Of a DNA stretch of 64,000 nucleotides, positions 10,856-64,000 are shown one piece after another; positions within the stretch are counted from its first letter, which is position 1, and the number at the start of each line of letters is the position of its first letter. The stretch covers positions 730,912 through 794,911 of the forward strand of contig NZ_LN555523.1 in NCBI RefSeq assembly GCF_900015215.1. Direction: 5' to 3'. The notes under the pieces are model-generated. The model saw only the letters and a list, made by a program, of their open reading frames with translations. It had not been told where the DNA came from and searched no databases. The stretch comes from Romboutsia ilealis (lineage in GTDB: Bacteria > Bacillota > Clostridia > Peptostreptococcales > Peptostreptococcaceae). A program made the position numbers and the translations under genes.

Positions 10856-10888
10856 ACCTATGGGAAAAATTTACCCCATAGGTTTTTT
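10856..10888 (+). terminator. Terminator of the gal operon
   Basis: AACCTATGGG pairs with CCCCATAGGTT, followed by TTTTTT. The T-tract is also the left edge of a diverged copy of the 195-bp repeat. Confidence 0.9.
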
Positions 10889-11040
10889 ACGTACAAGGAA
10901 ATTATATTATAAAAATACATATGGATAATCTCTGTATAATAGACAGAGCAATAGTTTTATAAGTGCAAAAAATTATATTTTAAGCAATGGATTTATCTAA
11001 AATTATTTGCTAACGCATCGCTTAATCTAAGCGTATTTTG
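10882..11040 (+). repeat. Diverged copy of the 195-bp terminator-associated repeat
   Basis: It begins at TTTTTTACG in the gal terminator, then follows the family in order: AAGGA, a TGGATAA block, a block resembling GTTTTGAGCGTAAAAAA, AAGCAATGGA, and a last part (about 11007-11040) that aligns over 34 bases with the GC-rich right end of the good copies and ends in TTTT. Internal deletions and many transitions mark it as old. Confidence 0.55.
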
Positions 11041-15868: not shown

Positions 15869-15901
15869 AGTAATATAATAAGAACATATTAACCATATTA
15901 C

Positions 15902-16100
15902 TTTTTTACGCTTAAGGATATTATAATACTTAAAAAATGTGGATAAATTCTGAATGTAAGTAATATTAATAAATTGGTTTTGAGCGTAAAAAAGATTTTG
16001 AAATACTTCGTCCACGCAGTGGCTCAAGCAACGGACGAAGTCGTTGGCGATATGAAGTGTTTCGCCGACACGTCGCTCAAGCGAAGCGAATTTTTTATTT
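15902..16100 (+). repeat. 195-bp terminator-associated repeat, copy A
   Basis: A well-preserved copy. The left edge TTTTTTACGCTTAAGG is the U-tract of the preceding gene's terminator. An inverted CTTTTTTACGCT / AGCGTAAAAAAG pair encloses about 75 AT-rich bases; then a GC-rich right half contains CTTCGTCC/GGACGAAG and TTGGCGA/TCGCCGA stems and ends in GCGAAGCGAATTTTTT. No open frame. Other copies lie at 10.9, 20.5, 38.2, 49.7, 56.5, 59.5 and 63.9 kb, all in the same orientation. Confidence 0.9.
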
Positions 16101-17160: not shown

Positions 17161-17244
17161 GCGGATGTGGCGGAATTGGCAGACGCACCAGACTTAGGAT
17201 CTGGCGCCTATGGCGTGGGGGTTCGACTCCCTTCATCCGCACCA
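17161..17244 (+). tRNA. tRNA-Leu (anticodon UAG)
   Basis: An 84-base sequence folds as a class II tRNA: acceptor GCGGATG/CATCCGC, D-arm with GGAATTGGCAGACG, anticodon stem CCAGA/TCTGG around CTTAGGA (anticodon TAG), a long variable arm, GTTCGACTC T-loop, and an encoded CCA end. It reads CUA codons (and other CUN by wobble). Single gene with its own strong promoter. Confidence 0.97.
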
Positions 17245-17354
17245 ATTACATAGAAAATCAATTTGATTTGACTATAAATTCAAATAAATAGACTTCTACT
17301 GTTAAATTTTTAGTTTACAAAATATCTTAGTAAGTGGTAATATATAAATAAAAA

Positions 17355-17430
17355 TAAAAAGGTGATGGAGTTCACCATTAAGTGCGAAAGCTAATGACTC
17401 CTACTCTTAAGTTTAAGGGTAGGAGTCTAT
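17355..17430 (+). promoter_or_regulatory. Fluoride riboswitch (crcB motif) with expression-platform terminator
   Basis: GGTGATGGAGTTCACC (17361-17376) followed by GCTAATGACTCCTAC (17390-17404) is the conserved core of the fluoride aptamer. The 3' part of the aptamer, GACTCCTAC, also forms the 5' arm of a terminator hairpin with GTAGGAGTC (up to 17428), then TATTTGTTT. Fluoride binding should therefore block termination and switch on the antiporter gene. A TTTACA / TAATAT promoter lies at 17314-17343. Confidence 0.93.
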
Positions 17431-20495: not shown

Positions 20496-20517
20496 AGGCT
20501 TTTAAAGCCTCTTTTTG
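20494..20517 (+). terminator. Intrinsic terminator
   Basis: AGAGGCTTT pairs with AAAGCCTCT, then TTTTT; it overlaps the stop codon of the flippase gene. Confidence 0.9.
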
Positions 20518-20612
20518 CATTTAAGGATATTATAATACTTTAAAAAATGTGGCTAGCTTTTGAATTTAAGTAATATCGATAAAGGGGATTTGAAGGTAAA
20601 AAATTTTTATAT
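20512..20612 (+). repeat. Left half of the 195-bp repeat, copy F
   Basis: TTAAGGATATTATAATACTT, AAAAAATGTGG and TAAGTAATAT blocks follow the family consensus, then a diverged GATTTGAAGGTAAAAAA replaces the usual GGTTTTGAGCGTAAAAAA. The GC-rich right half is absent. As in other copies it starts in the U-tract of the upstream terminator. Confidence 0.75.
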
Positions 20613-38237: not shown

Positions 38238-38436
38238 TTTTTTTACGCTTAAGGATATTATAATACTTAAAAAATGTGGATAAATTCTGAATGTAAGTAA
38301 TATCAACAAATTGGTTTTGAGCGTAAAAAAGATTTTGAAATGCTTAGCCCACGCAGTGGCTCAAGCAACGGACGAAGTCGTTGGCGACATGAAGTGTTTC
38401 GCCGACACGTCGCTCAAGCGAAGCGAATTTTTTATA
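38238..38436 (+). repeat. 195-bp terminator-associated repeat, copy B
   Basis: Near-identical to copy A over its length: TTTTTTTTACGCTTAAGG at the left, GAGCGTAAAAAAG in the middle, GC-rich right half ending in GCGAAGCGAATTTTTT. The first GC-rich stem is damaged (CTTAGCCC against GGACGAAG). Confidence 0.92.
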
Positions 38437-49689: not shown

Positions 49690-49880
49690 GTAATTAGATG
49701 TTATAATACTTAAAAATATGTGGATAAATTCTGAATGTAAGTAATATCAATAAATTGGTTTTGAGCGTAAAAAAGATTTTGAAATACTTCGCTCACCCAG
49801 TGGATCAAGCAACGGACGAAGTCGTTGGTGACATGAAGTGTTTCGCCGACACGCCGCTCAAGCGAAGCGAATTTTTTATC
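49681..49880 (+). repeat. 195-bp terminator-associated repeat, copy C
   Basis: It starts in the T-tract of a terminator; the ACGCTTAAGG block is replaced by GTAATTAGATG, but from TTATAATACTTAAAAA on it follows the family to GCGAAGCGAATTTTTT. Some changes lie in the GC-rich half (CGCTCACCCAGTGGATCAAG). Confidence 0.9.
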
Positions 49881-56529: not shown

Positions 56530-56721
56530 CGCTTAAGGATATTATAATATTTTAAAAAATGTGGATAACTTCTGAATGTAAGTAATATCAATAAATTGTT
56601 TTTGAGCGTAAAAAAGATTTTGAAATACTTCGCCCACGCAGTGGCTCAAGCAACGGACAAAGTCGTTGGCGACATGAAGTGATTCGCCGACACGTCGCTT
56701 AAGCGAAGCGAATTTTTTAAT
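56522..56721 (+). repeat. 195-bp terminator-associated repeat, copy D
   Basis: It follows copy A closely: TTTTTTTACGCTTAAGG, GTGGATAA, GAGCGTAAAAAAG and the GC-rich half ending in GCGAAGCGAATTTTTT. It differs in GGACAAAG, which breaks the first stem, and in a C-to-T near the last loop. Confidence 0.92.
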
Positions 56722-59464: not shown

Positions 59465-59655
59465 TTTTATTATGGATGATATTACAATACTTAAAAAAAC
59501 GGATAACTTCTAAATATAAGTAATACTAATAAATTGGTTTTAAGTTTGAAAAATATTTCAATAAACAGATGAAGTTGTTAGCGAAATAAAAAATAACATG
59601 ATATATGACTTAAAGTGTTTCGCTTACACTTTACTCAAGAGAATCTAATTTCATA
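59465..59655 (+). repeat. 195-bp repeat, diverged copy E
   Basis: It follows the family in order (GGATGATATTACAATACTTA, GGATAACTTCTAAATATAAG, AATAAATTGGTTTT, AAGTGTTTCGC near 59613) but has lost most GC-rich positions. It lies in the 485-base gap before hydE, otherwise without recognised features except the upstream region of hydE. Confidence 0.7.
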
Positions 59656-59748
59656 TCTAAAATAGTTAAAAAAATAACTATATTAAGATATGAATTTTAA
59701 TTTATAGATGGGGTATTAATTAAATATTAATGAAATAGAGGTGAATAG

Positions 59749-63859: not shown

Positions 63860-64000
63860 ATTTTTTACGTATAAAGTTAACTATAATATGAAAAATATGG
63901 AGAATTTATTAATGGAGGTAATATAAACTACTTTAGATCTTCAAAAATAATGCTTTGAAATGCTTCGACAACGCAGTGGCTCAAGCAATGGATGTGATAA
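63860..64000 (+). repeat. 195-bp repeat, diverged copy G (cut by window end)
   Basis: TTTTTTACGTATAAAGTTAA at the left, then a diverged middle, and TTTGAAATGCTTCGACAACG, CAGTGGCTCAAGCAATGGA at the right match the GC-rich half; the sequence ends there. The rest of the 63618-63860 gap shows nothing else. Confidence 0.75.

What the first reader, a model, noticed from the sequence alone, without database searches (positions are those of the whole stretch)
15902..16100. Unrecognised 195-bp repeat, eight same-strand copies, most inserted at terminator U-tracts
Seen: copies at 10.9 (diverged), 15.9, 20.5 (left half), 38.2, 49.7, 56.5, 59.5 (diverged) and 63.9 kb (diverged), all on the plus strand. 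In six copies (10.9, 15.9, 20.5, 38.2, 49.7, 56.5) the left edge falls in the T-tract just after a rightward gene, usually of its intrinsic terminator, and five copies share TTTTTTAC. TTTTTTA recurs at the right end. The left half has an inverted CTTTTTTACGCT/AGCGTAAAAAAG pair; the right half is GC-rich and structured. Known: group IIC introns target terminator hairpins, and IS200/IS605 elements insert after short motifs such as TTAC with strand bias and leave hairpin-ended, ORF-less derivatives. Inference: a non-autonomous mobile element, possibly IS200/IS605-derived.
Basis: partly seen in the sequence, partly recalled or inferred. Interest (0 to 1): 0.75.

Follow-up and report, generated by a model that had tools for sequence, protein, structure and literature searches.

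The report
Terminator-targeting hitchhiker DNA repeat
About a hundred copies of a short, gene-less DNA repeat lie in this bacterium's chromosome, most of them directly behind the stop signals (terminators) of genes and nearly all facing the way the DNA is copied; it is likely a hitchhiking mobile element that would slip into single-stranded DNA at the replication fork by pairing its own run of A's with the terminator's run of T's, moved by an enzyme not yet found.

Summary
The repeat is real and reaches far beyond the window. All eight window copies are there. In the own-genome DNA that I fetched I counted 110 left-end or core matches, 97 of them with at least two of five element motifs. Of these, 107 of 110 (95 of 97) point with the replication fork, switching at the GC-skew origin and terminus. 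99 of 110 follow a co-directional gene; 81 of 92 scored copies follow a strong hairpin at a T-tract. Empty alleles in sister species show insertion 3' of a host T5-7A, without target duplication; the right end carries its own TTTTTTA. One helix covaries across 14 genomes: host TTTTTT plus element ACGC pairs with internal GCGTAAAAAA. This works like a non-autonomous IS200/IS605-type single-strand element. Membership is not shown: 13 of 27 element-bearing genomes have no Y1 transposase match, and the 46 Y1 loci scanned show no such ends beyond two weak left-end-like stretches. Reverse transcriptase is absent from 7 of 7 genomes tested. Matches stay within one bacterial family. The mobilising enzyme is unknown.

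The parts
15870..15901 (+). host terminator-like hairpin (GTAATAT...ATATTAC) in front of copy A
   Evidence: sequence; hairpin score test over 92 copies
15902..15908 (+). host target TTTTTTA; insertion point after the A (inferred from empty sites of other copies)
15909..16097 (+). copy A of the element (CGCTTAAGG ... GCGAATTTTTTA)
15938..15946 (+). conserved TGTGGATAA, matches the DnaA-box consensus on the other strand (label recalled, binding untested)
15982..15994 (+). internal guide GAGCGTAAAAAAG, complementary to host T-tract plus element left end
16030..16045 (+). right-half hairpin AAC(G)GAC-GAA-GTC-GTT with one bulged G
   Evidence: stem variants GAC/GTC, GGC/GCC, GAATC/GATTC
16081..16087 (+). 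terminal mini-hairpin GC-GAA-GC just before the right end
   Evidence: variants AC-GAA-GT, AC-GTA-GT
16091..16097 (+). element-encoded right end TTTTTTA
   Evidence: right T-run is 6 in 70 of 80 copies whatever the left T-run
38246..38434 (+). second full copy
56530..56719 (+). third full copy
49690..49878 (+). copy with altered left edge (boundaries approximate)
20512..20603 (+). left half only; no right half matched
59478..59660 (+). diverged copy
63861..63992 (+). diverged copy, near the window end
10883..10937 (+). old diverged copy, left part detected

Best explanation
The repeat is likely a non-autonomous mobile element that is predicted to move as single-stranded DNA at the replication fork, in the manner of IS200/IS605 ends: it would insert just 3' of the T-tract-plus-A of an intrinsic terminator on the lagging-strand template, finding the site by pairing its internal GCGTAAAAAA with the target's TTTTTT and its own left end. 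SHOWN: copies in the fork direction with the switch at origin and terminus; the position after terminator-like hairpins; empty alleles with the junction at T(5-7)A and no duplication; a right end that encodes its own TTTTTTA; tandem copies placed at that right end or at the same terminator; compensatory changes in the T-tract/guide helix and in the small right-end hairpins. INFERRED: the single-strand intermediate; cleavage after TTTTTTA at both ends; a HUH-type or other single-strand nuclease acting in trans, either lost, rare or unrecognised; recognition of the short right-end hairpins by that enzyme. UNTESTED: whether any copy moves today.
For: Orientation: 107 of 110 matches follow the fork (origin about 2.4665 Mb and terminus about 1.18 Mb by GC skew), 95 of 97 with at least two motifs, against 114 of 146 genes on the leading strand in three unselected blocks (binomial p 8e-9). 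In relatives: R. timonensis contig G002:C5 33 of 34 listed left ends (skew switch between 1.29 and 1.32 Mb) and G015 14 of 15 right modules. Terminator target: hairpin score of at least 16 in 81 of 92 copies versus 25 of 58 unoccupied intergenic leading-strand T6A sites (p 8e-9). Fork effect beyond terminator direction: 79 leading to 2 lagging among hairpin-bearing copies versus 25 to 16 among available hairpin T6A sites (p 2e-7). Insertion: empty alleles at sites 82834, 510579, 639147, 1883673 and 2342213 with the junction at the T-tract. Left T-run varies while the right T-run is 6 in 70 of 80, correlation -0.12, so the right TTTTTTA is not a duplication. Guide helix: RNAalifold's only consensus helix; with all 27 chosen sequences 96.6% of cells paired, five pairs with double changes, 14 double-change cells versus 2.9 in shuffles, 0 of 500 shuffles as high, and sliding by 1-3 columns drops pairing to 44-71%. 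Right hairpins: GC-GAA-GC 62, AC-GAA-GT 7, AC-GTA-GT 4, AC-AAA-GT 2. No reverse transcriptase in 7 of 7 genomes.
Against: No enzyme: 13 of 27 element-bearing genomes have no Y1_Tnp match at E 1e-3, among them copy-rich ones (G002 37, G077 41, G085 64 right-module matches). The 46 Y1 loci scanned carry none of the end motifs except left-end-like stretches in L267 and L271; not all Y1 matches were fetched as loci. The guide lies about 80 nt from the left end, unlike the tetranucleotide next to a hairpin foot described for IS608 (PMC6006769, passages). The terminator preference is not a demand of IS200/IS605 that I know of (recalled); it is closer to group IIC introns. Besides the guide helix no left hairpin is conserved across genera. 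Three matches point against the fork (821831, 1597327, 1986432), also one in G002 and one in G015; fork direction was not tested in other relatives, and listed positions in G059 do not split simply. In Terrisporobacter-type copies the A6 guide is absent. In G002 5 of 25 sites read hold at least two motifs, so not every copy is a recent insertion.
Confidence: 0.6

Rival explanations
1. A group IIC-intron-like retroelement derivative: its RNA reverse-splices into the T-tract behind a terminator hairpin on lagging-strand DNA, the internal AAAAAA acting as EBS1 on the T-tract as IBS1.
For: A DNA hairpin plus T-tract target, an A-rich EBS1 and use of lagging strands are described for group IIC (PMC10190682, passages) and have counterparts here.
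Against: No RVT_1 in 7 of 7 element-bearing genomes tested. The only Rfam match on copy A to E 10 is an unrelated family at E 7. Only 126-220 bp long. The pairing continues across the insertion point into the element (ACGC/GCGT) and the right end repeats the target motif.
Confidence: 0.1
2. A host 3'-end element kept for a job (RNA stability, second terminator, replication or DnaA binding) and spread by recombination, not a mobile element.
For: Lies at 3' ends of genes, right end is itself hairpin plus T-tract, carries a conserved DnaA-box-like motif (57 of 110 exact), and some sites are shared by two or three species.
Against: Empty alleles with exact junctions, decayed and half copies, tandem insertions and species-specific subfamilies.
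Confidence: 0.12
3. Integration of a double-stranded circle by a tyrosine or serine recombinase with a TTTTTTA core shared by target and element.
For: A TTTTTTA core flanks most copies, and circle integration also gives precise empty sites.
Against: Does not predict the fork bias beyond terminator direction (79:2 versus 25:16), nor the conserved internal A6 that pairs with the host T-tract; left and right T-runs differ freely. No recombinase search was made.
Confidence: 0.08
4. Plain IS200/IS605 PATE: deletion derivatives of an ordinary IS605 whose TnpA-bearing parent has been lost, with nothing unusual in mechanism.
For: L267: a left-end-like stretch stands 28 bp before a decayed IS605-type transposase remnant at a terminator. 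14 of 27 element-bearing genomes do have some Y1_Tnp match, several of them broken.
Against: One case only and it may be a nested insertion; 13 of 27 element-bearing genomes lack any Y1_Tnp match; the one own-genome IS200 copy that was read (of 4) has other ends.
Confidence: 0.1

Closest known systems
IS200/IS605 ends-only elements (PATE, palindrome-associated transposable elements)
   Same: No ORF, insertion 3' of a short motif, no target duplication, lagging-strand-template orientation, guide-type pairing with the target (features from PMC6006769 and PMC7290912, passages; the latter paper reports no strand preference for its own IS605 set)
   Different: No TnpA parent found; strong preference for a terminator hairpin; a 7-nt T-tract target; one guide about 80 nt inside that also pairs with the element's own left end; modular right half
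Group IIC introns
   Same: Target is a hairpin plus T-tract; A-rich guide; lagging-strand use (PMC10190682, passages)
   Different: No reverse transcriptase in 7 of 7 genomes tested, no ribozyme match, right end repeats the target
REP/BIME repeats with TnpAREP
   Same: Short intergenic high-copy palindromic repeats with small hairpins (PMC6006769, passages)
   Different: Exact insertion site and one orientation; 13 of 27 element-bearing genomes have no Y1_Tnp match; GTGG occurs inside the element but was not seen at a hairpin foot
IStrons (CdISt1)
   Same: Insertion after a T-rich motif (TTGAT, ATTAT or TTTAT; PMC4227781, passages)
   Different: No group I intron match in Rfam, no transposase genes, right end TTTTTTA instead of TCAG

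Membership tests
IS200/IS605 family | Y1 HUH transposase (TnpA) between, or acting on, these ends | tested here: not met
   PF01797 without any match in 13 of 27 element-bearing genomes; no end motif near 44 of 46 Y1 loci scanned, left-end-like stretches only in L267 and L271
IS200/IS605 family | insertion 3' of a short motif without target duplication | tested here: met
   empty sites and T-run comparison
IS200/IS605 family | insertion into the lagging-strand template | tested here: met
   107 of 110, 95 of 97 strict; 79:2 versus 25:16; G002 33 of 34 and G015 14 of 15
IS200/IS605 family | subterminal hairpins with a guide that pairs with the cleavage sites | tested here: inconclusive
   guide helix covaries; right hairpins vary with pairing mostly kept; no conserved left hairpin besides the guide helix
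Group IIC intron | reverse transcriptase/maturase | tested here: not met
   RVT_1 in 0 of 7 genomes
Group IIC intron | terminator-like hairpin plus T-tract target | tested here: met
   81 of 92 copies versus 25 of 58 control sites
Group IIC intron | ribozyme core, domain V | tested here: not met
   no such Rfam match to E 10 on copy A
classical MITE | terminal inverted repeats with target-site duplication | tested here: not met
   left T-run is host, right T-run is element, uncorrelated; no duplication at empty sites
REP/BIME | GTAG/GTGG-tagged hairpin served by TnpAREP | tested here: inconclusive
   no Y1_Tnp in 13 of 27 genomes; GTGG is present in TGTGGATAA and in one right module, but no hairpin foot beside it was seen by eye

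The most novel reading that the evidence does not exclude
A family-wide class of gene-less elements that read intrinsic terminators as their address: an internal A6 guide pairs with the T-tract of a terminator exposed on the lagging-strand template, and an unrecognised enzyme (neither Y1 transposase nor reverse transcriptase, perhaps a host replication or DnaA-linked factor, given the conserved DnaA-box-like motif) inserts them there, so that they fill the safe gaps behind genes all around the chromosome.
Probability: 0.25. Interest if true: 0.85.

Novelty: new variant of a known kind. Interest (0 to 1): 0.63.

Why it matters
Where an element can land without harm is a basic problem for mobile DNA. 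Here about a hundred gene-less copies settled behind terminators on one strand of each replichore, and the address seems written into the element as a guide complementary to the terminator T-tract. If true it gives a natural test of replication-coupled single-strand insertion, a possible terminator-directed insertion tool, and an open question with a sharp edge: what moves it in genomes where neither a Y1 transposase nor a reverse transcriptase was found. It also adds many DnaA-box-like sites of fixed orientation to the chromosome.

Tried and rejected
Rfam: nothing at gathering score for the element, one match at E 7 to an unrelated family. Phages: no match; plasmids: one match covering 32% of the query. 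Own IS200 as parent: ends differ in the one copy read of four. Reverse transcriptase route: none found. Inner left stem (GATATTA/TAATATC) as a conserved hairpin: seen in own-type copies, not supported across genera. Guide changes tracking target changes: one case (G044: TATTTTA with TAAAATA, counted as a double change); own-genome copies with TATTTTA or ATTTTTA do not follow it, so reprogramming is not claimed. HuH-less TnpA-like protein of G058/G059 as mobiliser: no Romboutsia among the few named homologues and its HuH histidines look replaced, dropped. G001 was not used for empty sites: its assembly has N runs and repeated fragments at the repeats. Automatic empty-site flags (20) include misaligned ones; only continuous junctions by eye are used. 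Motif counts can miss decayed copies (e.g. site 74601 in G002, seen by eye). First-draft count 'at least 110 copies' was lowered: 12 of 110 matches show one motif only, and one copy split by an IS was counted twice. Literature: searches gave no paper on this repeat as judged from titles and abstract starts; the library is open-licence only, so absence from print is not claimed.

Full report
THE OBSERVATION. Blastn of the 15.9-kb copy finds the eight window copies, all on the plus strand. The window is bases 730912-794911 of a 2,581,778-base contig. The size matches the Romboutsia ilealis type strain (recalled); one same-genus genome, G002, has a contig of the same length as NZ_LT629850.1, R. 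timonensis. Genome-wide there are 90 left-core matches (3 in the reversed-pattern control), 68 right-core matches (0 in control) and 88 left-end matches. In the own-genome DNA fetched around these I counted 110 left-end or core matches. Of the 110, 98 show at least two of five motifs; counting one IS-split copy once leaves 97.

ANATOMY. Reading 5' to 3': host terminator hairpin; host T-tract plus A; element start CGCTTAAGG; a left half with a conserved TGTGGATAA; a guide GAGCGTAAAAAAG; a right half of small hairpin modules, one in the short form, more in the long; a terminal mini-hairpin GC-GAA-GC; the end GAATTTTTTA. From T-tract to right end the commonest lengths are 196-197 (37 of 80 copies with a recognisable right end) and 145-146 (18 of 80).

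ORIENTATION. GC skew changes sign near 2.4665 Mb and 1.18 Mb. Copies are + up to 1.11 Mb and from 2.486 Mb on, and - from 1.21 to 2.41 Mb; 107 of 110 follow the fork, exceptions 821831, 1597327 and 1986432; in the strict set 95 of 97. Genes on the leading strand are 114 of 146 in three unselected blocks, so gene direction alone would give about 78% (binomial p 8e-9). In G002 33 of 34 listed left ends on contig C5 agree with a skew switch between 1.29 and 1.32 Mb; in G015 14 of 15 right modules. Other relatives were not tested for fork direction; the positions listed for G059 do not split simply.

POSITION. 99 of 110 have a co-directional ORF of at least 90 aa as nearest upstream neighbour within 1 kb; 8 have an opposed one and 3 none near. 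A strong hairpin (score at least 16 in my own simple scoring) ends at the T-tract in 81 of 92 left-end matches, against 25 of 58 unoccupied intergenic leading-strand TTTTTTA sites, 16 of 85 lagging-strand ones and 13 of 269 inside genes. Among hairpin-bearing sites the copies are 79 leading to 2 lagging; the available sites are 25 to 16 (Fisher p 2e-7). So terminator choice and fork direction both count. The control sites come from three blocks, 184 kb in all, and use my own ORF calls.

INSERTION. I took 28 of 78 usable gene ends and looked up their orthologues in four relatives, then read the DNA behind them. Continuous empty alleles were found at sites 82834 (G002, G003), 510579 (G003), 639147 (G002), 1883673 (G002, G003) and 2342213 (G002). 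At 510579 and 2342213 the own-genome flanks, joined after the T-tract plus A, match the empty allele without a gap to the right of the junction. Many other sites could not be judged because intergenic DNA has diverged or, in G001, is N. Over 80 copies the left T-run is 3-8 (0 in two) and the right T-run is 6 in 70; they do not correlate (-0.12). So the left T-tract is the host's and the right one is the element's: no target duplication. The base after the right end is T in 61 of 80.

REUSE OF SITES. Some sites are shared: in G002 5 of 25 sites read hold at least two motifs, and site 1570246 is shared by eye. Site 959735 holds what looks like the same old copy in G000, G002 and G003. At 864344 the own genome and G003 each hold their own subfamily. 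At 1252394 G002 has a young copy between the terminator and an old-looking copy, where the own genome has an old copy alone; at 2235028 G002 has a young and an old copy in tandem where G003 looks empty. New copies thus seem to enter at the terminator T-tract or at the TTTTTTA end of an older copy.

GUIDE. I chose 27 left halves from 14 genomes; Terrisporobacter-type copies, which lack the A6, were left out. RNAalifold on 18 of the 27 reports a single consensus helix: TTTTTTACGC at the left with GCGTAAAAAA about 80 nt downstream (pair counts: 97.2% paired, 0 of 500 shuffles as high for three measures, 16 of 500 for the number of pairs with double changes, 155 of 500 for further pair types). With all 27: 96.6% of cells paired, five pairs with double changes, 14 such cells against 2.9 in shuffles, 0 of 500 shuffles as high except for further pair types (16 of 500); sliding by 1-3 columns gives 44-71% paired. 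Copies from one genome are related, so the shuffle numbers are not probabilities. Position 9 fails to pair in 4 of 26. The T6 side is host DNA; the A6 side is inside the element. The simplest reading is recognition of the target by pairing.

RIGHT HAIRPINS. The module AAC(G)xxx-NNN-yyyGTT keeps pairing as GAC/GTC, GGC/GCC and GAATC/GATTC with a free loop, with some broken stems such as GAACGAAGTC (4) and GGACGAAATC (2). The terminal mini-hairpin appears as GC-GAA-GC 62 times, AC-GAA-GT 7, AC-GTA-GT 4, GC-AAA-GC 3, AC-AAA-GT 2, and with one-sided changes GTGAAGC 5, GCGAAGA 2 and single cases (loci overlap, so the counts are not independent).

DISTRIBUTION. The right-module pattern (up to 3 mismatches) is in 27 of 71 genomes of the family (13 of 23 genera), up to 70 per genome, control 0; in an order-wide draw 13 of 198 genomes match, all 13 in this family.

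ENZYME. Of the 27 genomes 13 have no Y1_Tnp match at E 1e-3: G001, G002, G003, G010, G013, G015, G049, G052, G077, G081, G082, G084, G085. The other 14 have one, several of them broken. Of 46 Y1 loci scanned (30, 16; not every match was fetched) 44 carry none of the end motifs; L267 has a left-end-like stretch 28 bp before a decayed remnant and L271, from another family, a left-end-like stretch. RVT_1 is absent from 7 of 7 genomes tested. The mobiliser is therefore unknown, lost, or outside these families.

COMPARISON WITH THE KNOWN. IS200/IS605 elements insert 3' of a tetra- or pentanucleotide without target duplication and without terminal inverted repeats (PMC7290912, passages), into the lagging-strand template, with a guide next to a subterminal hairpin that interacts with the target and with the right-end tetranucleotide (PMC6006769, passages). 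Group IIC introns use lagging strands and pair an A-rich EBS1 with a T-rich IBS1 of a structured DNA target (PMC10190682, passages). The repeat shares the first set in chemistry and the second in target, and fails the enzyme test of both. I therefore file it as working like an IS200/IS605-type non-autonomous element, not as a member.

VERDICT. A real, abundant, probably mobile element; new variant of a known kind; confidence 0.6 in the single-strand, fork-coupled, guide-directed mechanism.

Noticed in passing
window 15938-15946 and other copies: The conserved TGTGGATAA is a perfect DnaA-box consensus on the other strand (label recalled). 57 of 110 matches have it exactly; of 64 such 9-mers in the 510 kb fetched, 57 lie in the element (the fetched DNA was chosen around copies, so the share is inflated).
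   Followed up: partly
G000:C1:1840451-1841564: An IS with a transposase-like ORF is inserted inside one copy, splitting left and right parts.
   Followed up: no
L267 (G006:C34), 1473-1700: At a ribosomal-protein-gene terminator an element-like left end stands 28 bp before a decayed IS605-type transposase remnant.
   Followed up: partly
L389 (G059:C1:1058938-1059288): A 133-aa Y1-transposase-like protein in which the HuH histidines look replaced; 49 homologues, one close one named from Paraclostridium.
   Followed up: partly
G001:C1: This 2,581,044-base genome is nearly collinear with the own genome, with N runs at the repeat sites and repeated fragments around them; it looks scaffolded on a reference.
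   Followed up: partly
L033, L034, L038 (Clostridium sp. 1001270J): The right module stands there as a tandem unit, two or three copies in a row.
   Followed up: no
window 17161-17244 and 17352-17410: A tRNA-Leu gene followed by a fluoride riboswitch.
   Followed up: no
G000:C1:820081-821831: Two copies in opposite orientation frame about 1.7 kb; the minus copy is one of the three that face against the fork and has no hairpin before it.
   Followed up: no
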